This document shows positions 1 through 47,480 of a DNA stretch of 64,000 bases, in pieces. A program made the position numbers and the translations under genes. Position 1 is the stretch's first letter, and each line of letters starts with the position of its first letter. The stretch is from Bolinopsis microptera (lineage: Eukaryota; Ctenophora; Tentaculata; Lobata; Bolinopsidae): contig NC_087072.1 in NCBI RefSeq assembly GCF_026151205.1, forward strand, positions 12,746,169-12,810,168. Direction: 5' to 3'. The notes below the pieces were generated by a model. That model saw only the letters and a list, made by a program, of their open reading frames with translations, ran no database searches and was not told the DNA's origin.

Positions 1-1788
1 GGATTGAGTGTAAATACGGGTGGTACCTACAAGGGGTATTCATGAAGCATTTAGAGATGTAAAACTGCAATTACAATAGTGCTTATAGAATATTTAGTAA
101 TTTCGATCGATATCAAAATAGTAGTACTGAGCACGATAACCCTTGATTCAATTTCACAAATACCCAGCCCCAAAAGTTGTAATGCAATTACGAGGGATGT
201 CAATATGTCATTAGTAATTAGTTAAACAGGTCAATGCGTCGGGAACAGAACACGATGGCCCTCGTTTCCACGTTAAAGTGAGTCATTTGAAAATACCGAA
301 ACTCTTGTGTCTGAGTATTCCGCCCTCGTGTCCGGTTCCCCAATTAAATGGTCTTAGACTGGCGACAATTTATGCTAGTCTGTTCAGTTATGCGCGTTTT
401 ACTGCTCCTCATATTAGAGGGCTTTTTAAAGGCCGTTTACCAGCATTTAGGAACGCTGTGATGGCCTCTACTATGAAATACAGGTTCATTTTTCTACATA
501 ACTAACCAGACTATACCACTATATACCGAAATGTGTGCAAATAAATCACCAGCATTCTGAAGAACGATATTTCAGCCGCAAATAATCACCAATATTTCTA
601 ACAGGGTGAAACTGGCTAGTTGTGGATTTGCTGAGAACCTATCACTAGCGAGCAAGTTCTACACGCTCTACAAACTCTGTGAGGAGCAACTCACCAAACA
701 GGTTTGAAAGGGAATGCAGTGCAGTTTTATACCCCAATCTATGATAACCTCGCCCATTCCGACAAGTTAGACCATTAAAGGTACAAATTGTCGGTGTCAA
801 GCCTGACAATATAAAACTAAATATAAAACCAAGCACTCCTTAAATAGTTATATTTAGCTATTTCAACGTCGAGAATATCTTATGACTGTCATTTAAACTA
901 CAATTTAGCTGACTGAAGCGTGATAAAGTGTCGGAAGAGGTGCGGTTATTGCTGCACCGATATTATCTCTATCATGGTGCAATTTATAATCCTGGAGAGC
1001 ACTGAGATTAACTTTAAGAAGAGACAATTAAACCCACAATATCTGATATTACTGATATGTCGTCAATATGTTGCAATACGAGTAACGACGGTTACCACTC
1101 AGTATCGTCTCCACAGTAACTACCACCTCCCCATGGTAACTACCACTGTAACCTTAGTAACTACCACTGTTGACGCAGGTTCATTACGATTTTGGGCTAC
1201 GAAATATCCTGTCGGTGTTGAGAACCCTTGGACAAAACAAACGAGACAATGCTTCAGATCCTGAGAGCAAAATAGGTACGTTCCCGCCCAGATTCTTATA
1301 CAACAAAATGGATATTTCGACATTTGTTTTTGAAAACAAATGTCGTAAAAAGAAAAGGCTTTATCTTCTGAAAGAAACTAGACATGCGAGTATCTAACAA
1401 ATTTCTCGACCGTTGAATATTTGAGGGCAACAGAGCGTTTGCTAATAGCTTGCACCCGGTGGGATCACTACTATTTTTTACAAGTGTCTAAAATTTGGAG
1501 TTCATAAGTTCAACCAGACGAAGGTAATGGACCGGCACAGACCGAAAGCTTCTCGGCCCTCCAAAACCTATTTACCAATAACGGTGCCAAAACAGACTGT
1601 TTAGTCCAAACACTTTCAATACCGAACCTAGCAAAAATCTGTATTTGAAATTATTATCTAATCTTACCGATAAACCACCATAATTATCAGACATACAAAC
1701 TGTTATCTGTCAGTTGGCACCATTGATCTGGTATCACAACTGATAAACTTAATGTTTCTAAACACTGATTTTGTTCTTCCCAATCCAG
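1..1788. other. Upstream intron or flank, no exon recognised
   Basis: This stretch should be the intron before the first visible dynein exon, because that exon opens with two bases of a split codon. I found no dynein-like translation here in any frame. Positions 1077-1170 hold a loose repeat built on GTAACTACCAC and its complement. The short open frames show no family resemblance and no splice-site support. Confidence 0.5.
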
Positions 1789-3065
1789 TTATGCGAGTGC
1801 TGCGGGACATGAACCTCTCCAAGTTGGTTGATGAAGACGAGCCTCTCTTCTTATCTCTCATATCTGATCTCTTCCCTGCGATCACACTCGACACTGCTGG
1901 TTTGTTAATATTGTGCTAGGCTTGGAAAATTGAGAAAACTGGTGGTAAAAACTTCAACTCTAGGTATCTCAGATAGGGTGTAACCCGTAACCAGGGTAAC
2001 CAGGACTTACTGGTAACTTCGCCAGGGTATCCAGCTCTTGAGAAAGCAATCAAGGACCAATGTGAAGAGGAGAAGCTGATCTACCATCTACCCTGGGTAC
2101 TGAAACTAATCCAGCTATTTGAGACTCAGCGAGTGAGACACGGGATGATGGCTTTGGGCCCCAGTGGGGCCGGTAAGACTGTGTGTATACACGTGCTGAT
2201 GAAAGCTATGAGCACGTGTGGTAGCTTCACTAAAGAGATGAGGATGAACCCTAAAGCTATCTCTTCACCACAGGTACTGTTAAGAGGGCTAATGTTACAT
2301 TGTTAGAATCTCTGATTTATCTGTTCACGGTGGTAGTTGGTAATAGATTGAGAAAAGAAACTTTTTAAAGCGGGTTTTCTGTAGGCTGTTAATTGCTTTG
2401 ATACCGGTTATTTTACTCATACTATAATGAAACCTGTAGCTATAGTCCCTAAAAGTAAAATATTGTTGCAGATGTTTGGTAGGCTTGACGTTGCTACCAA
2501 CGATTGGACGGACGGAATATTCTCTACACTATGGAGAAAAACTCTCAAAACCAAGAAAGGTTATTTTTCGTGCTTTCTTTCAGAAAACGACCTCTCACAT
2601 GCAAATACATTATCTTCCAAGGGCCTTTAACATGGGTTCGCTCACTGACAAACCCTATATCCTCACTCAATAATTAATGCAGGAGAAAATGTGTGGCTTG
2701 TCCTAGACGGACCAGTGGACGCTATCTGGATCGAGAACTTGAACTCAGTGCTGGACGACAACAAGACCCTAACTCTAGCAAACGGAGACCGCATCCCCAT
2801 GTCCCCCAACTGTAAGATCGTGTTTGAGCCCCACAACATTGACAACGCCTCCCCCGCCACAGTATCCCGTAACGGTATGGTGTACATGAGTAGCAGTGCG
2901 CTGGACTGGCACCCTATCTTAGAGGGCTGGCTGAACCACCGACCCCCCACTGAGAGGAAGGTCCTGATGGAGCTGTTCGAGGGCAGCTTCACTGCTGTTT
3001 ATACCTATGTGTGGCAGAGTCTGAACCCCAGGATGGAAACACTGGAGTGCAACTACATACGACAG
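1789..3065 (+). CDS. DNAH5: Dynein exons 1-4: AAA2 module
   Basis: Exon 1 reads [18 protein letters not shown], the conserved lead-in to AAA2. Exon 2 carries the AAA2 P-loop GPSGAGKT at 2157-2180. Exon 3 begins [15 protein letters not shown], and exon 4 holds the Walker B and sensor region ([17 protein letters not shown], then NGDRIPM and [12 protein letters not shown]). The exon 4 wording is nearer to what I recall of DNAH5 than of DNAH8. Exon 1 starts in phase after one base of an unseen upstream exon. Confidence 0.95.
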
Positions 3066-6000
3066 GTATCTATTCGCTATCAACCTGTTTAATACACGGT
3101 TACAAGATTTGATAGTATATTTTTACACAGGAATATAGCAAAGTAAAAATAAGAAACTTTCCTAATGATTGCAGTCGTGTAAAGAGGATCAATATAACAC
3201 TGACCTTTTCCAGGCTTGTGATCTGTTAGAAGGACTGATCCCTGTAAAGATAGACCTGAACTCGGGTCGGGAGGAGATAGCAGTCCTTTCTCCGGAGCAC
3301 TTAGGTCGTCTCTACGTGTTCGCCATCATGTGGTCTCTGGGGGCTCTGCTAGAGCTGGAGGACAGGGAGAAGATGCAGGAGTTCATGGTGGACAGGTGCT
3401 CTGTTGACATGCCTCCTTTCAACAAACATCCACCCGGAACTACTATATTCGAGTTTCTCGTTGACGACAAAGGTTGGTTATTACTGAGGGTGCAAAAATT
3501 GTGGCACAGTTTCTTTGAACTTTTATGCGTCATTAAGTCTCGAAAATAATCGTATTCTCATTTTGGCTGTCAACTGAAGTTATGAAGTGTCAAGCGCAAC
3601 TGACAAAACAAAATGCAGTGAAGTTTAATGATCCTTTGAAGATGTTGATTATCTTGCCCGATCCCTTTATGCTCCGTGACTCTTTATCAAACGTCACGAT
3701 ATTGAAACATTTTGTCTGAAGCAAAGATTGCTTAAATTTAACCATTCCCTGATTCTTGATTTCATGGTCCGGGCGTTATAATTCTAATGCACCCAAAAAT
3801 TTGACAGTCCATATAATCTTGTCTTCCTGTAGCTCGTATTTTTTATCTAGACACTTATTTTACTTCGGTGTATTCCAACAGCCACAATGTTACACAAGTG
3901 CAACCAGCCAATTACAGGAAGCCGAAGGAATTTAATATATATAAATTTAATGAACTGGGAATTTTCTGAAACAAATCGGGCTACGTCAATCGTATACTCG
4001 ACCAATTCTCATTACCTAGTATTCATATTTGATCTCTGAAAATTGCATATTGGCCCTGAAGTTTTTCCCTAGGCCTACTGACTAGCGAGGGTTGATATGT
4101 TAAATGCTTGCTTCATAACGGTTTAAACATTTTCTCACCAACAACTATTGGTCAAACTGGTTGACAACTGACACTTATCTCGATCAGAAAACTGGTCGCT
4201 CGGTAACATTGATATCGCTATGTACCGTAACACTAAATCTAACACGGTGCAGGTAACTCGTTGCTATCTAATACTAATATCGCGCAGGTAACTGGCAGCA
4301 CTGGTTGGAGAGGGTGGAGAATTACCAGTACCCCACGGACCACTGTCCGGAGTACTCTTCTATCCTGGTTCCAAATGTGGATAACGTGAGGATGAACTTC
4401 TTAGTGGAGACCATACACAAGCAGAACAAAGCTGTGATGTTAATTGGCGAGCAGGGGACCGCTAAAACTGTTATTCTCAAGTCGTTCGGGAGCAACGTTG
4501 TCAAGGAAGCCCCTGAGTTAAAACTCTTTAAATCCTTTAACTTCTCATCCGCCACTACTCCTTATCTTTTCCAGGTATTTCTAATACTTTTCTCTTTATC
4601 AACAGAGTGTTATAAATAGCTCAAGCAGAATTCGGTATTCGCTAAATCTAATGAACTACCATCGACCTGTAATGCTGAGGCGAATTTGTTTGAAGTAATG
4701 ACTTGAGCTTAAAATGCGTGGTTATATTTTAATAGATTTTGGTGTTCTGCTCCCATGTACCCAGGTGGTAATGGTAGTGGTGGAATAATTTCAAAAATTA
4801 CCATCAATTTTACGTGAAAATAGTTGAAACTAGAAGTCATGTTTTAGAGGCTAAATCACTGTTGTGACCTGCAGGAACAGTTTACATAAACAAATTACAA
4901 ATTAAAATGTTGGTAGTTTAACCGCACGGGCTCCATGTGAGCATTATAACGTGCCCAAACCCTCCGCAAACCCTCCGCAAACCATCACACCCATGCTTTA
5001 GTATTGGCCTTGAGGCTACTGAAAAGAACAACCTTCCAGAACAACCTTCCCCACTTTGTATGCCTTTTTAACTCTAAACCTCCTCCCAAATCTCAGAAGC
5101 CACTTTAAAAAGAAACCTCTACATCGTTAACACTGTGTACCGCTCCCCAGAGTTAACACTGTATACCGCTCCCCAGAGTTAACACTGTGTACCGCTCCCC
5201 AGAGTTAACACTGTATACCGCTCCCCAGAGTTAACACTGTGTACCGCTCCCCAGAGTTAACACTGTATACCGCTCCCCAGAGTTAACACTGTATACCGTT
5301 CCCCAGAGTTAACACTGTTAACACTGTTAACACTGTATACCGCTCCCCAGAGTTAACACTGTATACCGTTCCCCAGAGTTAACACTGTTAACACTGTTAA
5401 CAATCTATTTCGCTCCCCAGAGAACAGTGGAAGCGTTCGTTGACAAGCGCATGGGGAACACGTATGGTCCACCAGCCGGCAAGAAGATGACTGTCTTTAT
5501 TGATGACATCAATATGCCTGTTATCAACGAGTGGTTAGATCAGATCACCAACGAGATCGTCAGACAGCTCATGGAAATGAACGGTTAGAAACTATTTGTT
5601 GCGATGGCAACCATTCATAGCAACTATTTGTTGGCGTTGCGATGGGCGGTGAGCATTAAAGAGCCTGTGGTGATAAAACAGAACAATTTGTTGATATTAA
5701 TGGCAATACTCCTAATACTAATCAGCAGAGTACAGCTATCCTACTGTCAGCTATCCTACTGACGTGATCTGCTGATTAATCACCTTTTTGATACGACGGA
5801 ATTGTCTCTTGTTTATCCTTACGGCTTACTGACCTATAGACCATCTAGTTTTGCTCGAATAATTAAACTGTACTGGTTCATTTCAGGGTTTTACAGTTTA
5901 GAGAAAATCGGAGATTTTACAACGATTACAGATATGTTCTTTATGGCAGCCATGATTCAACCGGGAGGTGGTAGAAATGACATCCCTCAAAGGTAAAGCT

Positions 6001-9000
6001 AATATCTTAATCTGTACAAGTCATACCGCACGTCTCTCAGTATTTTTGGTAATCAAGTCTAGATACCAGATAAGGACCTTCTAGAACATTCCAGGTATTT
6101 AGTTTCCACTCACTTCAGGTTAAAGAGACACTTCAGTATCTTCAACTGCTGCCTGCCTTCCAACGCCAGCATGGACAAGATCTTCAAGACTATTGGCTGT
6201 GGTTACTACTGCAAGGAGAGAGGCTTCACGGAGGGTGTCATGCAGTTTGTTGAGCAGGTGGTTCCTCTGACCAGGAAACTTTGGCAAGCTGTTAAAATCA
6301 AGATGTTACCGACCCCTGCCAAGTTCCACTACATCTTTAACCTGAGAGATCTTAGCAGGATTTGGGAGGGAATGTTGAAGTGTATCCCGGAGGTAGCGTG
6401 CGAGCCGGCTATTATCCTAAAGCTGTGGAGACACGAGAGCACCAGGGTAATAGCGGACAGATTCACTAACCCTGAGGACCTAGTCTGGTTCCAGAAGACC
6501 ATGCTGAATATAGCTGAGGAGGAGCTGGGAGAGGAGTGTGCTGGTTACGTGCGGGAGGATGACTGGTTTGTCAGCTTCCTCCGGGACGCTCCCGATGTTA
6601 CAGGGGAGGAACCTGATGACCATGACTTTGACGCTCCCTCTATTTACGAGCCTATCGCTGACTTCGTGCAGCTGGAAGCTAGGCTGATCAACTTCATGGA
6701 ACAGTATAACGAGTCTATTAGAGGTGCTCCTATAGATCTAGTCTTCTTCAAGGATGCCATGACTCATCTCGTAAAGGTTAGACAGGATAAGTTGCTTTTC
6801 GAGTGTATAAGTGACATAATGTTTTTAATACACTACTTTCCATCAAGTTTCTTATTTAAAAAGTTTCCTCACTCTCTGGTTGCAATTGGCAGCATTTAGT
6901 TTACACAGCCAATCTCTAACAGGTATCTAGAATCCTACAGACTCCCCGGGGCAATGCCTTGCTAGTTGGAGTTGGAGGGTCAGGTAAACAGTCCCTTACC
7001 AAACTTGCCTCCTTTATCGCGGGCTACAAAACATTCCAGATAACACTGACCAGGTCCTACAACAGCAGTAATCTGATGGATGATCTGAAGATCTTGTACA
7101 GGGCTACTGGACAACAGGGGATACCTATGAGCTTTATATTTACTGATAATGATATTAAAGATGAAGCCTTCCTGGAGTATCTCAATAACATTCTCTCATC
7201 TGGCGAGGTTTGTCAATCAATGGCTCTTTAGCAACTGTTGAAAATGTTGTTGGCAAAAACACAGTGGGCAGAAACGTTCTATTCCTAGGCAGAAACATGA
7301 TCTTCAGAAAGTTGTTCAACTAGAACCTACATAACCCCAATTCTACAGGTTTCTAACCTGTTTGCACGTGACGAAATGGACGAGATTCAGCAGGAGCTAA
7401 TACCTGTGATGAAGAAGGAGCTACCCAGACACCCACCGACTCCGGAGAACCTTTATGAGTATTTCCTCTCTAGAGCCAGGAATAACCTTCACATCGTGCT
7501 CTGTTTCTCACCGGTTAGACCGTGTTTTACTAAGTCGGTTTTTGTAAAGGCGGTTACTTTATTTTCCATCAACCTTGAATTTCTTCAATAAAAGTGTAAA
7601 TAGTTGCAAATTTGTCTTCATCCTCGTATAGCTAACCCGTTTTATACCCAGGTGGGGGAGAAGTTCCGAAACAGAGCCCTCAAGTTCCCAGGACTTATAT
7701 CAGGCTGTACTATGGACTGGTTTGCCAGGTGGCCCAAAGACGCCCTCATAGCTGTGGCAAAGCATTTCTTGTCCTCTTTTGAGATGAGATGCGTTGATGA
7801 GGTCAAGGAACAGATCGTATACAGTATGGGGTGAGTTTAGTTACCATGTCACACTGGTGACAACATTACAGCCAGATTGCACTTAAAAACATTGCGTCAA
7901 CCTTCACAAATAAAAGAGAATCTCTTAATGTTCAGCACGTACATAGTCTTGGTCTAAAACTGACATTAGAGCCAGAAAGTTATTTAAGAGAGAACTTGTG
8001 ACTCATTCAACACATCACACACCCAGAACCCAGATGAATGTTATAACTATGCTTAGGTTACCCGATTCACGTACTGTAGTTCGACAATGTAGTTCGACAA
8101 TGTAGTTCGACAATGTAGTTCGACACTGTAGTTCGACACGCACTAAGGTTTGTCGGACAATAGTGTGTGTCGGACAATAGTGTCGGACAATAGTGTGTGT
8201 TGGACAATAGTGTCGGACAATAGTGTGTGTCGGACAATAGTGTCGGACAATAGTGTGTGTCGGACAATAGTGCGTGTCGGACAATAGTGTCGGACAATAC
8301 GTGTATAACTTTCCCTCAATTTACAGGTATATTCACGACGGGGTGGCTGAAGCTTGTGTCAAGTACTTTGATAGGTTCCGGAGGTCTACCCACGTGACCC
8401 CTAAGAGTTATCTCTCTTTCATCGCCAACTACAAAGAGATTTACATGGAGAAGTGCAAGCAGAAAAACGATATGGCGCAACGCATGAACACTGGTGAGGA
8501 AACTTTTTTCAAAAATTGAAAATAGCAAAATAACAGCTTTGCAACATAATAAAAAGCATCGAAATGTTGATTTCCTCCATCTCAAATTTATACTTTAAAA
8601 AGAGTTTGGGAAAAACTGGAACCTCATAGGACCTACAGAGGCAAATTTCAGTGATATCTCAAAATTAGTAGCTTGTCATTGTCCATGATATAAAAAAAGA
8701 GCTCGAAACATTATGTCCAAGTCTTCTCACATTATCTAATAAATGCAAAAAGCAAACAATTAGTCCACAATATGGTATGAACTGCATTATTACATCAAGG
8801 CCCAAATCGTGATTGTAGTGGACCTTATCTGCCTATATAAATGAATACCAGAAAGAACAGCCCTGTAGCACCGCCATAAGTGATAGCTGACGAAAGCTTT
8901 GTGCAATCTTCACAGTCTAGATTTTGTTGTATCGTACCGCTGGGCGTTCTGGTATCCGTAGCGACTGTATCGACTGTAAATGTGATCTCGGCTATAGTAG

Positions 9001-12000
9001 AGGTAGCCCATACGGTAGCCTCGTCACCCATCATACATGACATACGCAAAGAAACAGCGCCCTTGAGTTTACCCTCCACACTATCCCCGCTCTTCAGATA
9101 GCAGTTGTTATCTGACTCCAGGTAGGTGAGATGAGTGCACATCTCAAAACTCTGACACTCGTACACACAGTCCTCCACAGTTGGCTGGAGGGTTTTGTGG
9201 ATGTCACTCCCTCTTAGATCCCAGTCTTTAAGCAGGCAGTGTTGAACCACTGACAGGTGGTCTAAACAGGCATGATCCCACTCCTCCCAGGGACAGTTGG
9301 TGCTCTGATTGTTCTCACAGCAGGTGCTGAAGGAGAGCAGCGGTCCTCCGTCACACTTCCAACTAGAAGTAGGTACGTTGGAGGATATCCATGGGACACT
9401 GTTCACTGTGCTCGGGTACTTAGCCTCATGGTCGGTCTTGCAGCACTTGGTACCGTACTCGTAAACGTAGGGGTACTCCTCTGTGCACCATCCACCTGAG
9501 AGTTGGGGGAGTTACTAAACGTAGGGGTACTCCTCTGTGCACCATCCACCTGAGAGTTGGGGGAGTTACTAAACGTAGGGGTACTCCTCTGTGCACCATC
9601 CACCTGGGAGTTGGGGGAGTTACTAAAGTTACTAAACGTAGGGGTACTCCTCTCTGCACCATCCACCTGAGAGTTGGGGGAGTTACTAAACGTAGGGGTA
9701 CTCCTCTGTGCACCATCCACCTGAGTTGGGGGAGTTACTAAACGTAGGGGTACTCCTCTGTGCACCATCCACCTGGGAGTTGGGGGAGTTACTAAACGTA
9801 GGGGTACTCCTCTGTGCACCATCCACCTGGGAGTTGGGGGAGTTACTAAACGTAGGGGTACTCCTCTGTGCACCATCCACCTGGGAGTTGGGGGAGTTAC
9901 TAAACGTAGGGGTACTCCTCTGTGCACCATCCACCTGAGTTGGGGGAGTTACTAAACGTAGGGGTACTCCTCTGTGCACCATCCACCTGAGTTGGGGGAG
10001 TTACTAAACGTAGGGGTACTCCTCTGTGCACCATCCACCTGAGAGTTGGGGGAGTTACTAAACGTAGGGGTACTCCTCTGTGCACCATCCACCTGAGTTG
10101 GGGGAGTTACTAAACGTAGGGGTACTCCTCTGTGCACCATCCACCTGGGAGTTGGGGGAGTTACTAAAGTTACTAAAGTTACTAAAGTGGAAAGTTTGAA
10201 ATTAATTGTAGTGACTATCTGGGAGTTGGGGGAGTTACTAAAGTTACTAAAGTGGAAAGTTTGAAATTAATTATAGTGACTATCCCCAAAAAGTGCTGTT
10301 AATTATGTGACACTTGTAATAATAACTGGGTACAATTTAAAGAAAATATGATAATTTGACTTACTTATGGTGAAAAATAGAGCTAGTACTCCGAGCCACA
10401 CATTCATGTTCGCGATACTAACTGTCTGACAATATAACAATCGGAAAGGATATTTGCAGTTTCTTGAGCAATCATGAGCAAAGAGGTTATTATACCGAGA
10501 AAGGTGTCCCAGAATCTCAAAATTTGAATCGTAGGTGAGGTATTTTGAGGATTTAAGAATCCCAAAATTTGAATCATACGTAATTTTTGACTGGGAAAGT
10601 GGGAAGGGCTACTTTTGACTGGGAAAGTGGGAAGGACTACTTTTGACTGGGAAAGTGGAAAGGGCTACTTTTGACAGGGAAAGTGGGAAGGACTACTTTT
10701 GACTGGGAAAGTGGGAAGGGCTACTTTTGACTGGGAAAGTGGGAAGGGCTACTTTTTGCTGAGAGTGAGGGAAGGCCTACTTTTGAATACTTGAATGGGT
10801 GCAAAGTTATCGCGATGGAAATTTGTATACTTTATCTAGAACTTATGAAGTCCTGACTAGTGACGTTATGTTAGTTAAGTTTGTAAGGCTCGTTCCTTTT
10901 CTTTAAAATCAAGGCAAATACTGATCGAAAATATGTACATCAGAAATGTAAAAAATCACTACTCTTCAGATGCAATAACAAAACTGCAAAGAAAGAATAA
11001 GATCTCATTTGATGCTATGCTCTTTCTTTACGCTGCAATAAACTCTCTCAAAGGATAACGTGCCTAATTTTAGAAACGTACATATTTCGAGAAAATCCAA
11101 GAAATTATGATAATAGGATTTCATTTTTTCGATCGATCGCTGAAATATTCTCTGTGCATAGTATATCGCTATTGTTTGTACGACAATAGTCTGCACTGTC
11201 GACTGTCGTCGGTCCATTTAATGTCAGTACCTTGACGAAATCTTAAATCATTAGAACAAATCGCGATCATGAAATATCCGGCAAAATTAACGGATATTTC
11301 ATGAAAATTCGCAACATCATCAACAATTCGTTACACTTATTACACTTGTTACACTTGTTACACTTGTTACACTTGTTACACTTGTTACACTTGTTACACT
11401 TGTTACACTTGTTACACTTGTTACACTTGTTACACTTGTCCGCCATCTCAATGTTGCCTCTGTTATTTAGTAGTGGTATTAACAACTGCCCCTGTTATTT
11501 AGTAGTGGTATTAACAACTACCCCTGTTATCAGGTTTAGTAGTGGTATTAACAACTGCCCCTGTTATCAGGTTTAGTAGTGGTATTAACAACTGCCCCTG
11601 TTATCAGGTTTAGTAGTGGTATTAACAACTGCCCCTGTTATCAGGTTTAGTAGTGGTATTAACAACTGCCCCTGTTATCAGGTTTAGTAGTGGTATTAAC
11701 AACTGCCCCTGTTATCAGGTTTAGTAGTGGTATTAACAACTGCCCCTGTTATCAGGTTTAGTAGTGGTATTAACAACTGCCCCTGTTATCAGGTTTAGTA
11801 GTGGTATTAACAACTGCCCCTGTTATCAGGTTTAGTAGTGGTATTAACAACTGCCCCTGTTATCAGGTTTAGTAGTGGTATTAACAACTGCCCCTGTTAT
11901 CAGGTTTAGTATTGGTATTAACAACTGCCCCTGTTATCAGGTTTGGACAAGCTGAACGAAGCAAGTGAGTCAGTAGCGGAACTCTCGGTAGAGCTTGTCG

Positions 12001-15000
12001 AGAAGGAAAAGGAGCTCGCAGTGTCCTCTGTTAAAGCGGAGAAAGTGCTGGCCGATGTGACTATTCAAGCTGAGGCAGCAGAAGTTGCCAAACAGGAGGT
12101 GCAAAAAAAGAAGGACAAAGCTCAGTCTATATTCGACAGCATCTCAATTGACAAGAAGATTGCGTTGGAAAAACTGGAGAAAGCAAAACCTGCTCTTAAA
12201 GAAGCTGAAGCGGCCCTGCTAACTATAAAACCAGCAGATATAGCGACAGTGAGGAAGTTACCCAAACCACCTCATCTCATTATGAGGATATCAGACTGTG
12301 TGCTGTTGTTGTTGGGCCGCCAAGTGGAACAGGTGGAGATGGACCCGGACAGACCGTGTGTCAAGCCGAGCTGGAGCCACTCTCTCAAGATGTTGAGTGG
12401 CAGCACTTTCCTGCAGTCTCTACAGAACTTTAACAAGGACACCATAAACGACGAGGTGGTGGAGTTGCTGCAGCCCTACTTTGAGATGCCAGACTATTCG
12501 CTTGAAGTTGCCAAAAAGGTTTGATCAGCGAACATTTTGCGTTTTTAATTAAGTTTGTCAATCGTTAAAGAGTTTTTAAACTTAAAAGTTTGCGACAATT
12601 TCGCTGATTAACACCCGTCTCCACGAAATGTTGTCCCCCATAACGATTCGGGTTAAACTCTGTCGATTTCACTCTGATGATTATTTGTCGCGACTAGCTT
12701 AATCAAATTTCAAATCAATATTAAATATTAATCAAGATCATACATATTATGTTGATAAATATAACCACAAATTTGCCTCTCCTAGGTGTGCGGTAACGTG
12801 GCGGGACTCTGTTCATGGACCAAAGCAATGTCCGCATACTACTCCATCAACAAGGAAGTGTTACCACTTAAAGCTAACCTGGCAGTTCAAGAGCGGAGGT
12901 TGGAGGACGCCAACGAGAGTAAGCTCCAGGCTCAGGGACAACTGGACGCTAAGAACGCTGAACTGGACAAGGTTATTACACTGACTATTGTTGTAAGAAA
13001 AGGACGGCCACTTTTATAGAGATTAATTGTTATAAGAAAAGGACTTTTATAGAGATTAATTTATAGAATAACTCTTGAGACGTCTGAGCTCGATACGCTT
13101 TCGGGAGACGACTTCCGGGGAAGTAGTTAGCGACATTAGAGAATATGTCAGTTGTCAAATCTTCTGAAGGATTGGCTTATTTAAGTGCAATATCAATATA
13201 TCAACTTATCCTCGCCACCAGAGTCGCGACACCAAATTGAATGGAGGATTTCTCAATCCTCAGCGTGCGTTGTTACCATTAGATTCATTAAGGTTACCAT
13301 TAGGTTCCATGGTGTGCCACATTCTGGGGAATTATGGGGAAACTCGACGTCAGCGAGCTACGGAATTTAATTATATAATATATAAGATACAAACAAAATT
13401 GAATATGGTCATATTTCGAAATCGCATTCGCTACTGGAATTAATATCAGTATGAACTGCATTCGGACAACATTCTTTACAAGCAGCCAAGTTCAAGCGTC
13501 TTGAATATTTTGACAGCAGTTTGAAAGACTGAAATATAATAGGGTGGTTTCTCTAGTCGCAGAGGTTATCAATAGCCAAATCCCACGATAAGATTTTGTC
13601 CAAAAAATCGTCTTAGATAGTTGTTCACTATTATTAGCTTGATGTTACATTATTGGGCGGCGCTCAGCCTGTCATTCCGCAGAATCTTTATGTTCATGAA
13701 CATTATAGCCTGGGGTCCCCAGGTAAGATGTCTCAATAATCTCAGCTGTTCTTTGAAAAAGTACTTTACTGACCAACTGACTTATCTGCCAACCGAGTTT
13801 ACTATTCAAACAGCTGTCACTGTAAATGAGTCTGGAGAAACTGTACAAATCAGTATGAAGATACTTAGTAGTTAATAGTAGTTAATATGTAGTTGGTTAA
13901 ACTATGCCGGCCCATGATTTTCCGAATCGCTTACCAGTGGAAATCTAGTCAATTCAAATATCTGCTTGCTTGGTACTCATGGTCGATACAATCACAGCCC
14001 AACCGCATTCTTGATCAGACACATGTGCATACGCCATCCTTGGGAGCCGTCAGTTGAGCTTGCTCTCTGACTCGTGGGTTGAAAACATCGTGTACAGTAC
14101 TTCGTGAGTAGTACAGTACTTCACAACGATAATCCGCCTCCCCAATCGCAAAATTAAAAAATAGTAGTTAATATGAATTAAAATACTCACCTAAAGTCGA
14201 AAGAGGGTATAGGGGAGGCGGGAGCGTATGAACTGTAGCTCCACTTTACACTAACCTCGCCACTAACCTCACCACTAACCTCACCACTAACCTCACCACT
14301 AACCTCACCACTAACCCCACCACTAACCTCACCACTAACCTCACCACTAACCTCACCACTAACCTCACCACTAACCTCACCACTAACCTCACCACTAACC
14401 TCACCACTAACCTCACCACTAACCTCACCACTAACCTCACCACTAACCCTACCACTAACCTCACCACTAACCTCACCACTAACCTCACCACTAACCCTAC
14501 CACTAACCTCACCACTAACCCCACCACTAACCTCACCACTAACCTCACCACTAACCTCACCACTAACCCCACCACTAACTTCACCACTAACCTCACCACT
14601 AACCTCACCACTAACCTCACCACTAACCTCACCACTAACCCTACCACTAACCTCACCACTAACATCACCAGTCACCACTAACCTCACCACTAACCTCACC
14701 ACTAACCTCACCACTAACCTCACCATTAACCTCACCACTAAACTCATCACTAACCTCACCAATAACCTCATGTTCAGGTAAGGAAACTGTACGATGACGC
14801 TATGAGGGAAAAGAAGGATCTTGAGAACGATGCTGATACTTGCAAGAGGAGGATGGTAGCAGCTAAAACTCTGATAGATGGACTGAGGGGAGAGAAGATC
14901 AGGTGGACTGAGCAGAGTAAGGAGTTCAAGGCTCAGATAGAGAGGTGAGTTGCTAATAATTTCATTGATAGATAATATGAGGGGTGGTATCTTTGTAAAA

Positions 15001-18000
15001 ATTACAAAAAATTTAAAATATTGGGTTTTCATCGCGGTGGGCTGGTATGTCTCAATTATACGCTATTTTATTAATATTTTTTAATATGAGTTTGGCAGAT
15101 TGGCTTGATATGATGAATAACCACTTCCTAACTTTAAACTTATCGTCGAAATTTAATAAATACTTCCGAGATTTAATTTTAAACGCTGATAGTTAGAATA
15201 AACGAAAAATGACCAATATCCCTAAATTGGATTTAAATATTCATCAAATCCTCTGAAAAATTACTTAAAATAAACTGTTTAACTGTCAAACGATATGAAC
15301 TAACTGAGCAAGATTTTTAATATTCGTTTGAAATATCAAATCAGAAACTGCCATCACGATTGTTCCACCGCGCATATAGGCATGTATTGCCATGTTAACT
15401 CGACAACTCCAATTCATATTAATCACGTCCGAATTCAAGTATGATTAAAAGGAGCACAAGCTCAAAGATGATGATATGTAATATGTATTTATATTAAAAG
15501 TCTGTTAAAATTTCGGGCTAAAAAGTTCATTTGATAGACACGAATCTCTATATGATCTCCATCTCATCAGATTTGGGTCTAATTCAAGTACCAATATGAC
15601 TACCAAATTGGCAAATTGCCAAGATCGACCAATTCCAGTACACGTTTATGATCCATTTCAATTTACTAAAAGCTTATTCGTAGCGTGATATTGTATTGCT
15701 AGAGATGCATTGAGTAAAATATAGAAAGCGACAGCCGTCCATATCAGAATTGACAAATCAAAATGAGAGTTTTCTACAGATGAATCTCGCCTGAATTTAA
15801 GTATGATTGATAAAAGCCCCAAAGCTCAACGCCCAACAAGATTATGTATCTGAACTGATCGATTTATGTTTAAGTGCTGATGTCATTTGATATTTAATTA
15901 TATCACGATTCTCAGTACATTCGCGATTTCATCAAATTTCGACCAGTTCAATCAATCATCTGAAGCGAATGGACATTTTGTCAAGTTCGATCTATTTTCA
16001 GTATAAGTTTTGCTCTATTTCTATTTTAAAAAGCATATTCGTGATATCAAAGTGGAGTTGCTAAGTTGGCATGGTAATATCTGATGTTTTCTGACAAATA
16101 TGCTTAAGGACCAAATTTATTTTGTTGCGTCAAGAATTGTCCATGAAAACATCAGAAACCATTAGAATCGACCGCGTGCCGGCTACCAGAAACCTCCTTT
16201 TTGAACCACCTAAAATGCCAAAATTTATCAGAAACTTAAGCACTTTTGTCGGCAGATATGTGCGGTAGAACAATCTTAATGGCGGTTTCTTATTTGATAT
16301 TCTAATTTCTATTATTATACTACAAAATAAATTTAGAAACAGGTCATATCACTGCCATTGACTGATAAATTTAAATATATGGAGTTCGATGAGTTTGCGG
16401 TTTTTAAGCTGACTGAATTTGCGACTGTTAATGTTAAGTTCAACTCTAAATAGTGTAACTTCCTCAATACAGGGCCCCCAATACATTAAATACTTCCTTC
16501 ATTTTAAATGAGTTGTTCCTCTGAACACTCAACACTAGGTTGTCATGCCAACTAATACTCCTCCACTCACTAGGTTGCCATGCCATTTGCCAACTAATAC
16601 TCCTCCACTCACTAGGTTGTCATGCCAACTAATACTCCTCCACTCACTAGGTTGTCAAGCCAACTAATACTCCTCCACTCACTAGGTTGTCATGCCAACT
16701 AATACTCCTCCACTCACTAGGTTGTCATGCCAACTAATACTCCTCCACTCACTAGGTTGTCATGCCAACTAATACTCCTCCACTCACTAGGTTGTCATGC
16801 CAACTAATACTCCTCCACTCACTAGGTTGTCATGCCAACTAATACTCCTCCACTCACTAGGTTGTCATGCCAACTAATACTCCTCCACTCACTAGGTTGT
16901 CATGCCAACTAATACTCCTCCACTCACTAGGTTGTCATGCCAACTAATACTCCTCCACTCACTAGGTTGTCATGCCAACTAATACTCCTCCACTCACTAG
17001 GTTGTCATTCAACTAATACTCCTCCACTCACTAGGTTGTCATGCCAACTAATACTCCTCCACTCACTAGGTTGTCATGCCAACTAATACTCCTCCACTCA
17101 CTAGGTTGTCATGCCAACTAATACTCCTCCACTCACTAGGTTGTCATGCCAACCAATACTCCTCCACTCACTAGGTTGTCATGCCAACTATTACTCCTCC
17201 ACTCACTAGGTTGTCATGCCAACTAATACTCCTCCACTCACTAGGTTGTCATGCCAACTAATACTCCTCCACTCACTAGGTTGGCAGGAGACGTGTTGAT
17301 GGCGACTGGTTTTCTGTCCTACTGCGGACCCTTTAACCAGGAGTACAGACAGTTGTTACTGCGCAACTGGCAGGGAGAGAATAAAAGCAGGAGTATCCCA
17401 TACACTCACAACTTGGACCTCATCAGCATGTTGGCTGAGAAAACCACTGTGAGTCAGAGTACTTTTATTGACTAGATTAAGACGTGTACTTAAGTACGTG
17501 TTCTATAATTGTGGACACAGCTATGTATTAAGTTGGTAATCTTGTAGCAATGGTGTCTCAATTGAACTGCTGTTTAGTTTTATTTTCAACATACTCTAAT
17601 AAATGTATTTGCAGATATCGGAGTGGAATCTACAAGGGTTGCCTAGTGATGAGCTGAGTATCCAGAACGGTATCATCTGCACCAAGGCCACCAGATATCC
17701 CCTCATTATTGATCCCCAGGTACGCATGAGTTTGGAATTATCTCACTTTCTATAAATAGTTCACTACCAAATAGTTCACCATCAATATTCGAAATTATCC
17801 CCATATAAGGCACTTATTTGTATAACCAGATGACGAAGGCAAAGCACTGGTGGTCAAAGCAATGGTTATAATTATTAATCGAACCGAGTTAGCTCTAAAC
17901 TGTCAACTCAAATAGTGTTACTTCCTCAAATATATGCTCTGTCAGTTTAAACAACTATAATGTGTCACTATATAAGATACTGGGAGAACGTTGGCCTTAC

Positions 18001-21000
18001 CATTTATCGTTTTAATATGAAGTGTCTGAAAGTTGTCTCGGGATTTGATCTCGGCCAGCCTGTCGCATCACAGAAAATCAAATGCGTGACACAAAATTTT
18101 ACTCGATAAACATTTGGGAGTTGAACTGAGAGATTGTTGACAATATTAAGATGTACGGAACTTTTACAGACAGAGTTAAACGGTACGTAACCAAGGTAAC
18201 AAGGTACGTAACCAAGGTAACACGGCTTAAGTTTAGGAGTTATAGCTAAAATCTAAACTTTCAGGGACAAGGAAAGATCTGGATCAAGAACAGAGAAAAT
18301 ACCATACTTACGGTAATTATTAACTAATTAAGTAATTATTAACTTCCTCCCTTTATAGTTTATATCTAGTTTCAGTTCGAGGATCGCAATATCATTCCGA
18401 TAAAGTAACAGTGTATATTATAATGAATGTAAAGGTATCGAGATGAAACGGTTCATTTAATAATAAAATAACATTGTCATCACTCACATCGGCCACACCA
18501 ATGATGTGGTAAATTCCACTGAGTGGTTCAAACTTCAAATAGTTTCATGGTAAAAGTATCTGTAAACATTACTCTAAATTCGAGTCTCCTGCAACCTCTT
18601 CCGTGTTCTCCTTTATCGCTTATATTTGAATTGTAATGATAAACAACATATTTGTTCATTATTTTCAATTTTGTACCAAACGAGTTGAATTAACCATTTT
18701 AGAGCGAGGGAAAGGAGGCAAAAGATTTCTCCGTAAGTCATTCGCCGGTCTTTGATAAGCTTGAATGAACACTCTTCCATTGCTTTAACGAAATGCTAAA
18801 GACTAAAAATCTTTATCGAGTCGTGAAGTCACAATATGATTTGAGATTCATGAATTCGTTCATCGAAAAATCAGTGATTGATTCATATCTGTGGAAAATT
18901 AGCTGATCGATTTTGAAGAGATGATGAATGAAAACTTGCTTGCTTTAGTGATTCACTGTTGGCTGCTAATTGGCCGCTAATTGGCTGCTAATCTCGTTTG
19001 AATATCAGATAATACTTTCCGCATGCCATATCAGTGATTTATTATCAGCATTATATCAGCTGATAGAGAATGAAAACAACGCTGTAATCTCAATATTGTT
19101 ATCTAAAACTCAGATTATAATGTATGGATTTCCTATCACTGGGATAACATTCAAGTCATTGATTTCATAGAATGAAAACTCACCTGCATCGTTGTTACTT
19201 ACTGCTTATACTGTTTTTATACGAATACTGGAGATTTATTTAGTCAGACCACCGTTTTTGTTAAATTGTTCTGCATTCAGCTCATTTAGTTACCTTAACT
19301 ATTAAAGCAACCCTTAAATGAAATATATGTTGAATGATGCTCGTAATCGAAAGCTTGTTGCTGTTGAACCTTTAAACGTCACATATTTTGTAGCTGTGTA
19401 CGTAATAGTTAATACGTAATTAGTCACCATATTATAACTAACAGGTGACATCGCTCAACCACAAGTTCTTTAGAACGCATCTGGAGGACTGTTTGTCGCA
19501 AGGGCGTCCTCTCATGATCGAGGATATAGGTTAGTTCAACGCTTTAACAGTAAAACATTTTATTAAGGTAGCAAACTATCGTTACCGCACACAATCAATT
19601 CCAAAACTTTCCTGCGTCACAATCGCCAACTGTTAAAGTTAATTAAAATGATCTGGTTTTTGTTCCCGACTACAAGGGGTGTATACTGTCTAAGTGGTGT
19701 GATATTGACCCGATTTACCGCGGAGTTTGGGGAAAGGAAACACCCGCGGTAAATCGGGGTTTTGTTTGTTTACATTATAATGCATGTTAAGCCCTATTTG
19801 GGGAAAGGAGATGGCCGCGAATAAATCGGGGTTTGTGGTAAATCGAGGCCGGTAATCGGAGATTTACTTCATAATGACAATGTATAATGTATACAATGTA
19901 TAATGTATACAATTTATACCTGTATAATGACAATTTGAATCTACTGTTGTTCTTTCACAGGTGAGGAATTGGACCCAATTCTTGACAATGTTCTGGAGAA
20001 AAATTTCATTAAGAGCGGCAAATCATTAAAGGTAATCCCAAATTATAGATGTTTTATTGGACAAGTCTCAAATATGAATGATTTTGATCGTAAAGAGAGG
20101 AATCCATATATCTTTTATTTCCTTGGATCTTTAAATCATTTGTCAGAAAAAAAGTTAAGAGCAGATTTGAGGTTTCTTTGATAAATTGATAAAAACAGCA
20201 AAATTATGACAACCCCTCTTTGTGTAGGTTAAAGTGGGTGACAAGGAACTTGATGTGATGAAAGGGTTCCGGATCTACATCACTACAAAACTAGCTAACC
20301 CATCCTACACTCCGGAAATATCCGCTAGAACCAGTATCATCGACTTTACAGTAACGATAAAGGGGCTGGAGGACCAGCTGTTGGGTATTGTTATTCTCAA
20401 GGAGAAGGGAGAGTTGGAGAAAGAGAGGACTAACTTGATAGAGGTTTCAAGATTGTAATATGTTTAATGAAATTTTCAATAAGCCCTGTCAGCTGTTACG
20501 CATTTTGGGTGTTTAATTAAGCCAGTCTTGTGGCCGGTTTACTTCCACAGTATCACTTGCTAGACTAATAAGATACACTCCGTATTTTATAAAGATGGTT
20601 AATTTTGGCGAAGGCTTCGGCATCTTCAATTTTGACCATTTTGAAGGCTTCACCGTCTTTAATTCATCGCAAACCGTCTCAAAATTTTTTGGTAGAAGTA
20701 AGGTCAGTGTGTGAAATATGCTTTATTACATACGATCTATTGTGGCGTCTTTATCTTTTCAATTGTGAAGCCTTGCCATCTTTAATTTTTTTTCATTTGA
20801 GGCTTCGTCTTAATAAAGAGCATCTTTACAAAACATACGGAGTGTACAACAAATAGCCTGACAATCAATAAAACTCCCTCTTCCTCTGCCAGGATGTGAC
20901 AGCTAATAAACGCAAGATGGATGAGCTGGAAGAGAACCTGCTGTTCAAACTAACCAGCATCCAGGGTCCTTTAGTTGATGACGAGTCTCTTATTGAAGTG

Positions 21001-24000
21001 CTCGGTGTCACTAAGATTACATCTGAAGAGGTATTTTCCTTACAGTTTTGACATATTTTAAATATTTAGAACAGGTGATTGCACACTACCCTCGAGTAAG
21101 GTATGCTAACCCTACTCCCCACTCAAGGTATGCTAACAATGTATCTCTTTAGGTAAAGCACAAGCTAGTAACAGCGGCGGAGACGGAAGTGAAGATAAAC
21201 ACAGCCCGAGAAGAGTTCAGACCAGTAGCAACCCGAGGTAGCATCCTCTACTTCCTTATAGTGGAGATGAGCTATGTTAACTCAATGTACCAGACAAGTA
21301 TCAGACAGTTCCTGGCCCTCTTTGATGATAGTATGGAGAAGTGAGTCATTTAAGCGTTTAAATTACACTGCTCCTCAGTCCTCACCTGCGAATAGGAATG
21401 ACGCTATTTATTGTAATGACAAAATGATTATTTTGACAGTTGTTTAAAGGTATTTGGTGAATGCGACAGAATCTCGATTCTCGCTGTTATAGCGCTAAAT
21501 AAACAAGTAACCCAGAAATCATGGTAGCATCGAACGAGTTACTTTGTATTTCTAGAATTCCAGTTTTATAAAAGTTATTTTTGAGCAAGCGGTAAATCCT
21601 TAACTACTTCAGGTCGGACAAATCTCCCATCACGAGTAAGCGGATATCTAACATCATAGACTACCTGACCTATGAAGTGTGGAAATACCAAGTAAGAGGG
21701 CTGTATGAGGAGCACAAGTTCCTGTACACTTTGCTCCTAACCCTCAAGATCTGCCTTCAATCCAACAGAATCAAACCGAACGAGTTCATGACCTTTATCA
21801 AAGGTAAGCGAATCCTGCTTTTTACCCCTTGTCTTACTATAATATATACCGAGACGATAGATATCTGTTGCCATTTTACTGACACCACGACAATCGACAT
21901 CAACTACTTTAACACGACTTCCCGCGAGATATACTATCGAATGCACACTCTCAGACCAAATTGAATATATTGTACGATATTGTTTTTTCACAGGCGGTGC
22001 AGCACTAGACTTAAAAGCCGTGGCACCAAAACCAAAAAACAACTGGATATCCGATATGACTTGGCTAAACCTGGTCGAGCTGTCAAAGATTCCTCAATTC
22101 TCTGAAATCCTAACCCAAGTCTCGTGAGTATATCTTAACTTAATAAACTTCCTAGCTGTTTTAATTCCGTTACTAAGTTTTACAAGTGCCATAGTTTTAC
22201 AGTTTCATCTCACTTTAATTAAAGTACAAAGTCTGAGATCCTTTAACTCTGATACGAAAACCACCAATCCTCAGACGAAACGAGAAAGCATGGAGGCAGT
22301 GGTATGACAGCGATGCTCCGGAAGAGGGCAACATTCCTGACGGTTACCAGAACTCACTTGATATCTTCAAGAGAACACTGCTGGTTAGATCCTGGTGTCC
22401 CGACAGGACTTTAGCTCAGGCTAGGAGGTTCGTTGTGGACGCTCTAGGTCAGAGGTTTGCTGATGGAGTTATCCTTGATTTCTACATGATGTGGGAAGAG
22501 AGCGATAACATGACTCCTCTAATCTGCTTCTTGAGCATGGGATCCGATCCTACTGCTCAGATTGACACCTTAGCTAAGAAACTGAAGGTGGATTGTAAAC
22601 CTGTGTCTATGGGACAAGGTCAGGAGATCCACGCTAGACGCCTCCTCACCAACTCGATGAGTCAGGGAGGATGGGTCCTGCTGCAAAACTGTCATCTGGG
22701 ACTCAACTTCATGGACGAACTACTTCAGACGATCACAGAGCCGGCAGGTCCAGTACACGAGACCTTCAGACTGTGGATGACAACAGAAGGACACCCTCAC
22801 TTCCCTATAAATCTCCTTCAGATTGGTCTGAAATACACCAACGAACCACCTCAAGGGGTTAAAGCTGGAGTTAAGAGAACGTACAACGGAGTGACCCAAG
22901 ATCAGCTTGACATAACCAACATGCCCCAGTGGAAGCCCATGCTCTACACTGTAGCAATCCTCCACACAGTCGTTCAGGAGAGAAGGAAGTTTGGACCACT
23001 CGGCTGGAATATCCCATACGAGTTTAACCAGGCTGATCTGACAGCTTCTATCCAGTTTTTACAGAACCATCTAGATGACATGGATCCTAGACACGGTGTG
23101 AACTGGAGCACGGTGCAGTACATGATAGGGGAGGTTCAGTACGGAGGCAGGGTTACTGATGACATGGACAAGAGGCTCCTCAAAACCTTCTGTAAAGTCT
23201 GGTTCAGGGAGGAGATGTTTCTTCCGGGTTTCCAGTTTTTCACACCAGTTGGGAACAACTGCGATGCTGGCAAGCCTTATACCATCCCACAATGTAAAAC
23301 TGTTCAGCAGTACCTGGACTTCATTGAGAAGCTCCCTCCAGTAGACTCCCCAGAAGTGTTTGGGATGCATCCGAACGCGAACATCACCTACCAGAGTAAA
23401 ACAGCTAGAGATATCCTGGACACTGTCCTGAATATCCAGCCAAAAGAGAGCAGTGGGGGACTGGGGGAGACGAGGGAAGCTGCCGTCTCCAGAATGGCTG
23501 ACGACATGTTGTCAAAGCTACCTGACGACTACATCGCTCATCAGGTCAAAGATAGGATTAACGAGATGGGGGCTCTTTCTTCGATGAACATTTTCCTGAA
23601 GCAAGAGATAGACAGGATGCAGCGAGTGATAACATGTGTTAGGAGCACCCTGACAGATCTCAAGTTGGCGATCGAGGGAACCATAATAATGAGCGAGAAG
23701 TTGAGGGAAGCACTCGATAATATCTACGACGCCAAAGTGCCGCCCTTCTGGACCCGGATCTCCTGGGACAGCAGCACTATTGGCTTCTGGTTCACTGAAC
23801 TGATAGAGAGAAACTCCCAGTTTCACACTTGGTGCTTTAATGGAAGACCTCACGTCTTCTGGATGACTGGATTCTTCAACCCTCAGGTAATTCATAAAAT
23901 TTCCTCACTGATTTTGTTTATAACAATCTATTATAATCAAATCTAATTTTGATTCGTCTTGTTTTAGATTGGGATAAGTTTATCTCGAATCTGGATTATT

Positions 24001-46949: not shown

Positions 46950-47480
46950 TCACTGTAACACTTTGAAAGAAACACGAAGATTGAACAGCGAGACAGAGAA
47001 TGGACAGTGAGACAGAAATTGAACAGTCAGACAGAGAATGAACACCGAGAAAGATTGAAAGGTAAGACAGGGAATTAACTCTAAAATAGAGAATGAACAC
47101 TGATGCAGAGATTGAATAATGAGACGGAGAATTAACGTCGAGACAGGAATGAACAGTGATTTAATAGTTAAACAGAGAATGATCACTGAGAAAGAGATTG
47201 AATAGTTAAACACATAATGAACGTTGAGACAGATTGAATATTGAGACGGAGAATGAACGTCGAGACAGAGAATGAACATTGAGACAGATTGAATAGTGAG
47301 ACGCAGAATGAACGTCGAGACAGAGAATGAACATTGAGACAGATTGAATAGTCAGACGGAAAATGAATGTCGAGACAGAGAATGAACGCTGAGACAAAGA
47401 TTGAATAGTTAAACAGAGAATGAACGTTGAGACAGATTGAATAGTGAGATGGTGACAGATCGAATAGTTAGACGGAGAAT
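46950..47480 (+). repeat. Degenerate purine-rich minisatellite
   Basis: Irregular repeats of GAGACAGAGAATGAAC and GAGACAGATTGAATAGT run for about 530 bp. In wording it resembles the larger satellite at 48.6-50.8 kb (GAAGACAGAGAGTTAATACT), and the two may share an origin. Confidence 0.85.

What the first reader, a model, noticed from the sequence alone, without database searches (positions are those of the whole stretch)
4575..17279. Introns of one locus repeatedly end in minisatellites made of their own 3' splice site
Three dynein introns (6, 13, 16) and the intron of the nested antisense gene each end in a tandem array. In each, the unit contains a C/T-rich run and an AG, with a branch-point-like motif, and the last AG is the true acceptor. 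Unit sequences and lengths (26, 37, 35, about 54 bp) are unrelated, so the arrays arose independently by a shared process that starts at the acceptor and grows into the intron. This points to a mechanism tied to intron 3' ends. Options are slippage or R-loop breakage at splice sites, or selection for spare branch points. Intronic minisatellites called mirages have been reported from amphioxus Adh. Whether they have this geometry needs checking.
Basis: partly seen in the sequence, partly recalled or inferred. Interest (0 to 1): 0.92.

Follow-up and report, generated by a model that had tools for sequence, protein, structure and literature searches.

The report
Branch-point minisatellites beside intron acceptors
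In an animal genome that looks like a comb jelly, several introns end in long tandem repeats of their own splicing signal, mainly the branch point; this is a cousin of the "mirages" known from lancelets, and similar repeats also sit at intron starts, so it is not a process exclusive to intron ends.

Summary
Three introns of a DNAH5-type dynein gene and the intron of a nested antisense gene end in minisatellites whose last copy carries the predicted acceptor. In 37 further loci (295 kb), chosen by Pfam hits and not by repeats, arrays end within 30 bp of an acceptor about twice as often as random placement gives (11 of 57 against 4.6; P 0.0015). Donor-side arrays are also somewhat enriched (7 of 57 within 20 bp against 3.4; P 0.03), and acceptor does not significantly exceed donor (P 0.096), so an acceptor-only mechanism is not supported. 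Acceptor-side units of 60 bp or less carry TAAY on the sense strand in 9 of 10 cases, against 3.7 expected from local sequence. Boundary-spanning arrays are known from amphioxus as mirages, at both boundaries. Best explanation: local tandem duplication at intron boundaries, filtered so that the exon-proximal copy still works; other copies nearly neutral. A paralogue has one of these introns without the minisatellite, so that array is younger than its intron. New here: the branch-point-only class and the likely ctenophore host.

The parts
5126..5422 (+). 26-bp minisatellite ending at a dynein acceptor; unit = branch-point-like GTTAAC + C-rich tract + CAG
11466..11944 (+). 37-bp minisatellite, 13 copies; unit = TATTAACAACTGCCCCTGTTATCAG|GTTT...; includes 4 exon bases
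14249..14770 (+).
16533..17283 (+). 35-bp minisatellite, 21 copies; unit = CAACTAATACTCCTCCACTCACTAG|GTTG...; includes 4 exon bases
9462..10168 (-). 54-bp minisatellite in the intron of the nested antisense gene; unit = 20 bp of intron end (branch point, C-rich tract, CAG) + 34 bp of exon 2 start
8151..8298 (+). 13/30-bp array 28-36 bp upstream of an acceptor; no TAAY in the unit (the natural TATAAC lies outside it): counter-example
606..21803 (+). 27 exons of an axonemal dynein heavy chain, DNAH5 type; coding predicted on to about 24440
8825..10407 (-). nested antisense gene model, two exons (10407-10365 and 9495-8825), 237 residues, PAN-domain match, signal-peptide-like start by eye

Best explanation
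These are mirage-type minisatellites. A short segment next to an intron boundary was duplicated in tandem and then amplified into the intron by slippage or unequal exchange. At 3' ends the segment usually holds the branch point and C-rich tract, sometimes also the AG and up to 34 exon bases. Selection keeps the exon-proximal copy because it is the working splice site; the upstream copies are largely neutral, probably because the acceptor beside the exon is chosen by exon definition and misuse of an upstream AG nearly always meets a stop. Arrays that overwrote the branch-point region persist only if their unit carries a branch point, which gives the sense-strand motif. The same kind of duplication occurs at donors, so the process belongs to intron boundaries in general. 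Shown: geometry, motif, excess near boundaries, copy-number difference between paralogues, and array younger than its intron in one case. Inferred: the duplication mechanism, neutrality of extra copies, and which acceptor is used.
For: Acceptor excess in the sampled loci under two nulls: uniform-in-intron after dropping paralogous copies, 11 of 57 within 30 bp against 4.6, P 0.0015; random relocation, 15 of 80 within 40 bp against 5.9, P 0.001. Donor excess weaker: 7 of 57 within 20 bp against 3.4, P 0.03, but 8 against 5.8 within 40 bp, P 0.18; 10 of 80 against 5.7, P 0.05. TAAY on the sense strand in 9 of 10 acceptor-side units of 60 bp or less against 18 of 40 other units, Fisher 0.011; same-length local segments of 195 array-free introns would give 3.66, P 0.0004; with the two longer units 10 of 12. 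Array-free introns show TAAY peaking at -20 to -16; at 17 of 23 junctions printed a TAAY starts at -28 to -15 (four of the 17 are the ABC paralogues; in some it lies between array and exon). Length differs between paralogues: one array in four ABC-transporter paralogues at 312, 65, 1147 and 177 bp; another in two ion-channel paralogues at 293 and 3716 bp; homology. The C11 dynein paralogue has the same intron at the same codon boundary without the 26-bp array. Exact-motif upstream acceptor copies meet a stop in 9 of 9 (26 bp), 9 of 11 (37 bp), 19 of 20 (35 bp) and 12 of 12 (54 bp).
Against: No RNA data, so the used acceptor and neutrality are inferred. A TRF-free scan of 59 introns found tandem coverage near acceptors (3-9% in the last 70 bp) below mid-intron (14%) and similar to donors (2-9%). 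Exons come from a small gene finder trained on the window dynein. The TAAY motif was chosen after I had seen arrays, and in the window alone it is not significant (4 of 5 against 2.3, P 0.14). In AG-free acceptor-side arrays, substitutions that make an AG are fewer than expected (1 against 8.0; 1 against 3.0 when each variant is counted once), a hint that upstream copies are not wholly neutral.
Confidence: 0.6

Rival explanations
1. One reading: a mutational process specific to acceptors (R-loop breakage or slippage at splice sites) starts arrays at intron 3' ends only.
For: The five near-boundary dynein arrays in the window and the nested gene's array are at acceptors, none at donors; acceptor excess is the stronger of the two in the other loci.
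Against: Donor-side arrays are nearly as frequent (10 against 15 of 80), acceptor minus donor P 0.096; donor-spanning arrays exist: L010 2621-2748, L011 4043-4927, L011 431-483.
Confidence: 0.12
2. Extra branch points are selected: each copy raises splicing efficiency or gives redundancy, so arrays are retained at acceptors.
For: Branch-point motif far above local expectation; the (AGTGTAAC)n array is kept in four ABC paralogues whose aligned blocks are 73-99% identical, although a separate TTAAT lies next to the exon; AG-making changes scarce.
Against: Branch-point columns are not more conserved overall (6.0% against 3.5% mismatch; 2.2% against 3.1%, P 0.07, without the ABC paralogues); array length is erratic, 65 to 1147 bp in the same intron.
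Confidence: 0.2
3. The arrays are ordinary random minisatellites of a repeat-rich genome and the acceptor position is chance plus purifying constraint.
For: 39 of 61 bracketed arrays outside the window lie outside both 40-bp zones; no extra repeat coverage near acceptors.
Against: Two placement nulls reject it for acceptors at P 0.001 to 0.004, and the motif content is not explained by location alone.
Confidence: 0.2
4. The arrays are traces of intron gain by tandem duplication of an AGGT-bearing exon segment.
For: Three window units carry AG|GT in nearly every copy (12, 22 and 13 AGGT in the 37-, 35- and 54-bp arrays); the amphioxus globin paper proposes this model.
Against: The intron at 4575-5420 exists at the same codon boundary in the C11 paralogue without the 26-bp array; 6 of 19 acceptor-side units lack AG.
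Confidence: 0.08

Closest known systems
Amphioxus 'mirages' (Adh3, globins BflGb6 and BflGb9; PGBD5; troponin C)
   Same: Minisatellite-like tandem repeats at intron/exon boundaries; units of 10-72 bp in Adh3, 150-160 bp in BflGb6; many units carry AG/GT; length instability; splicing reported undisturbed; boundary copies escape homogenisation in BflGb6 (PMC3087553, passages; PMC3902484, passages)
   Different: Different animal: scaffold number and size fit a ctenophore, not a lancelet. Most acceptor-side arrays here stop before the AG and repeat a branch-point segment, up to 61 copies; the passages read do not describe this class.
Intron gain by tandem genomic duplication (PMC4974935, seen only as a search listing with the start of its abstract)
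   Same: Tandem duplication of splice-site-bearing DNA
   Different: Here at least one array sits in an intron that already existed, shown by the C11 paralogue; the other array introns were not tested.
Ordinary intronic minisatellites
   Same: Period, homogeneity, copy-number change, many mid-intron arrays
   Different: Excess of ends near exons and strand-specific branch-point content.

Membership tests
Amphioxus-type mirage | Tandem repeat unit spans an intron/exon boundary | tested here: met
   Clearly met by the nested-gene array (34 exon bases), L028 (array overlaps the exon by 30) and L036 (10); weakly by the 35- and 37-bp arrays (4 bases each). NOT met by 14249-14770 nor by 10 of 12 acceptor-side arrays of the other loci after dedup, which stop 3-36 bp before the exon. 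So membership holds for part of the arrays only.
Amphioxus-type mirage | Occurs at both 5' and 3' boundaries | tested here: met
   Donor-side arrays at L010 2621, L011 431 and 4043, L002 6784, L013 5021, L016 2401
Amphioxus-type mirage | Length instability | tested here: met
   Paralogue comparison only; alleles and somatic change not testable
Amphioxus-type mirage | Regular splicing from the true boundary despite repeated AG/GT | not testable with these tools
   No RNA data; the homologous reading frame needs the last acceptor
Intron gain by tandem duplication | Intron absent in relatives without the duplication | tested here: not met
   Same intron present in the C11 paralogue without the 26-bp array; the other array introns were not tested
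Branch-point array (class proposed here) | Sense-strand TAAY in the unit and a copy at branch-point distance | tested here: met
   10 of 12 acceptor-side units after dedup; 17 of 23 printed junctions have a TAAY starting at -28 to -15. Units without TAAY: L029 8615, L036 425 and window 8151

The most novel reading that the evidence does not exclude
Branch points themselves nucleate or favour tandem amplification in this lineage, giving a distinct class of branch-point minisatellites, the longest seen a 1.8-kb array of an AG-free unit, that buffer 3' splice-site choice and are kept across gene duplications.
Probability: 0.2. Interest if true: 0.8.

Novelty: new variant of a known kind. Interest (0 to 1): 0.5.

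Why it matters
Mirages are described from amphioxus in the two papers whose passages I read. Finding the same geometry in a genome that looks like a ctenophore suggests a recurrent way in which intron boundaries grow, and arrays made of bare branch points offer natural experiments on how the spliceosome picks one of tens of equal branch points. The claim can be tested at once in an RNA-annotated ctenophore genome.

Tried and rejected
Dynein paralogues as an intron sample: dropped, because eight paralogous loci match in one uninterrupted stretch over more than 900 residues. Genome-wide scan: not possible, since G000 gives no file and allows 300,000 letters; replaced by 37 loci from five Pfam family searches (PF00063, PF00664, PF00176, PF00118, PF00520). 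Some of these are paralogous or near-identical loci; L014/L015 and L016/L017 were taken knowingly as pairs. Intron gain as origin: rejected for one intron. Selection on every spare branch point: no consistent column conservation. AG avoidance: suggestive only. TRF-free coverage test: went against an acceptor-specific effect. Dispersal of the array units: a query of four units found only the window (the 12- and 13-bp units were not queried), though a query with flanks finds arrays 70-75% like the 26-bp array at C1:4.86 Mb (27-bp unit x66), C2:0.19 Mb and C12:14.7 Mb. Species: likely, not proven (see report). Literature on branch-point arrays: nothing on this class in what was listed for (5 of 5 papers; 20 of 67; 15 of 15; 12 of 159); titles and abstract starts only, open-access library only.
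Full report
OBSERVATION. The window lies in a 264.65-Mb genome of 232 contigs. I spliced 27 consecutive dynein exons that read through without a stop; 1462 of 1464 residues submitted match a solved dynein axonemal heavy chain 5 (8j07_n0). The 26-, 37- and 35-bp arrays end at the acceptors at 5421, 11941 and 17280, with 0, 4 and 4 exon bases matching one unit upstream; the nested antisense gene's 54-bp array includes 34 exon bases. Each of these units holds TAAY, a C/T-rich stretch and AG. A further intron ends in 43.9 copies of CACTAACCTCAC, no AG in the unit, 7 bp before the acceptor at 14778. A sixth array (8151-8298) near an acceptor has no TAAY in its unit.

SAMPLE. Because the genome gives no file, I cut 37 loci (L001-L037, 295,400 letters) around matches to PF00063, PF00664, PF00176, PF00118 and PF00520, chosen from the match tables for dense exons, before seeing their sequence. 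A small exon-chaining gene finder trained on the window dynein gave 314 introns in chains scoring 30 or more, 285 of them outside the window. Predicted proteins of seven loci (two of them in part) were checked and match the expected Pfam families; the others rest on the gene finder and the family matches. TRF arrays of score 80 or more and at least 45 bp were used.

PLACEMENT. Of 61 bracketed arrays outside the window 15 end within 40 bp of an acceptor (7.1 expected by uniform placement in the same intron, P 0.0007) and 8 within 40 bp of a donor (7.1 expected, P 0.41); one (L028 2809) counts at both; 39 at neither. After dropping four paralogous copies: 57 arrays, acceptor within 30 bp 11 against 4.6 (P 0.0015), within 20 bp 8 against 3.5 (P 0.0075); donor within 20 bp 7 against 3.4 (P 0.03), within 40 bp 8 against 5.8 (P 0.18). 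A stricter set of 32 gives acceptor 8 against 3.3 (P 0.009) and donor 6 against 3.4 (P 0.09) within 40 bp. A second null that moves arrays within each locus gives acceptor 15 of 80 against 5.9 (P 0.001), donor 10 against 5.7 (P 0.05), difference P 0.096. Six paralogous arrays were dropped there; two of the 15 (L016 2126 and 4268) lie beside weak exon calls on the other strand and are probably spurious, one of the 10 (L020 241) overlaps a weak exon, and L011 4043-4927, a donor array, is missed because the finder read through it. A TRF-free test on 59 introns of at least 400 bp (loci L013, L014, L015, L029 left out) finds tandem coverage of 3-9% in the last 70 bp before acceptors, 2-9% after donors and 14% mid-intron. 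So array ends are enriched beside exons, more surely at acceptors, but array mass is not, and the two ends cannot be told apart statistically.

MOTIF. In 250 array-free introns TAAY starts peak at -20 to -16 (61 against 15-35 in the other 5-base bins upstream of -10; the antisense motif has its own highest bin, 40, at -25 to -21); I read this as the branch point. For units of 60 bp or less outside the window, acceptor-side units carry TAAY on the sense strand in 12 of 13 (4 of 13 antisense; 3.5 after shuffling), donor-side in 2 of 7, mid-intron in 16 of 34 (9.6 after shuffling). After dedup 9 of 10, where same-length segments at the same distance in 195 array-free introns would give 3.66 (P 0.0004); in the window alone 4 of 5 against 2.3 (P 0.14). 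With the two longer acceptor-side units it is 10 of 12. TAAY was picked after I had seen arrays, but its peak in array-free introns is independent of them. Examples: (TAACCCCAG)x56 touching the acceptor in L030 (not in the placement test, as no upstream exon was found); (ACACACTAACT)x27 in L031; a 30-bp CTAAC unit x61 (1.8 kb) in L025; (GTTACCCCTCACTAATC)x6 in L002. Units without TAAY: L029 8615, L036 425, window 8151.

EVOLUTION. Four ABC-transporter paralogues keep the (AGTGTAAC)n array in one intron at 312, 65, 1147 and 177 bp; two ion-channel paralogues share a (TGTTTCACAAG)n array of 293 and 3716 bp with nearly the same flanks (74-78 bp to the donor, 166 bp to the acceptor). The C11 dynein paralogue has the intron of the 26-bp array at the same codon boundary (MFQ|ASIESY against LFQ|RTVEAF), 0.66 kb long, with only a 50-bp ATTGTAC array 49 bp from the acceptor. 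The 26-bp minisatellite is thus younger than the intron.

FUNCTION. Using an upstream exact copy of the acceptor motif would meet a stop in 9 of 9, 9 of 11, 19 of 20 and 12 of 12 cases for the 26-, 37-, 35- and 54-bp arrays (one search had a wrong phase for the 35-bp case). Branch-point columns mutate more than others overall (6.0% against 3.5%) or slightly less without the ABC paralogues (2.2% against 3.1%, P 0.07). AG-making substitutions in the six acceptor-side arrays with AG-free units number 1 against 8.0 expected, or 1 against 3.0 counting each variant once; mid-intron arrays 10 against 14.7, or 5 against 4.6. This leaves near-neutral spare copies as the simplest reading, with weak hints of constraint.

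KNOWN. [quoted passage not shown] PMC3902484, passages). The original Adh report did not come up in one search and is known here only through these papers. The boundary-spanning arrays here fit that kind; the branch-point-only arrays are a variant that I did not find described in the listings of searches (open-access library; titles and abstract starts).

SPECIES. Contigs C1-C13, 15-26 Mb each, sum to 97.5% of the assembly; the other 219 hold about 6.6 Mb together (lengths). Bolinopsis microptera is reported with 13 scaffolds holding 97.23% of bases and a k-mer size of about 254 Mb (PMC10232365, passages). The identification is likely, not proven.

Noticed in passing
G000 C1:6095458, C11:10284224, C9:13502334, C3:8956236, C4:10072300, C6:18650095, C8:1762005, C2:8722355: Eight dynein heavy-chain paralogues match in one uninterrupted stretch over more than 900 residues, while the window dynein has dozens of introns; suggests retrocopies or wholesale intron loss.
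   Followed up: no
L016 2401-2593, 4268-4581, 6299-6382; L017 987-1092, 1723-1829: Closely similar 21-bp units (such as GTAGTTGTCATGGTAACC) form arrays at several places of one ABC-transporter gene; the unit resembles an RFX X-box (recalled, not tested).
   Followed up: partly
L039 211-1997 (C1:4.86 Mb), C2:0.19 Mb, C12:14.7 Mb: Arrays 70-75% like the first dynein array (27-bp unit x66 in L039); in L039 one array end looks donor-like on the minus strand by eye.
   Followed up: partly
L011 4043-4927: 40-bp unit x22 without mismatches, spanning a donor and about 30 bp of exon end: looks like a 5' mirage.
   Followed up: partly
window 46978-47480, 48774-50794: Large arrays (19-64 bp units) rich in GTTAATACTG and GTAACACTG, similar in flavour to the first dynein array; not in an identified gene.
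   Followed up: no
C13:13.53 and 16.22 Mb; C3:18.56 and 21.28 Mb; C12:14.37 and 14.88 Mb: Pairs of similar loci on one chromosome, either recent duplications or uncollapsed haplotypes.
   Followed up: partly
dynein acceptors; 81 of 314 predicted exons: Exons often begin with GT, giving AG|GT at the acceptor (16 of 26 dynein acceptors).
   Followed up: no
window 31746-32457 and 35330-36041: Two blocks 3584 bp apart with identical coding-like translations, probably a repeated mobile element.
   Followed up: no
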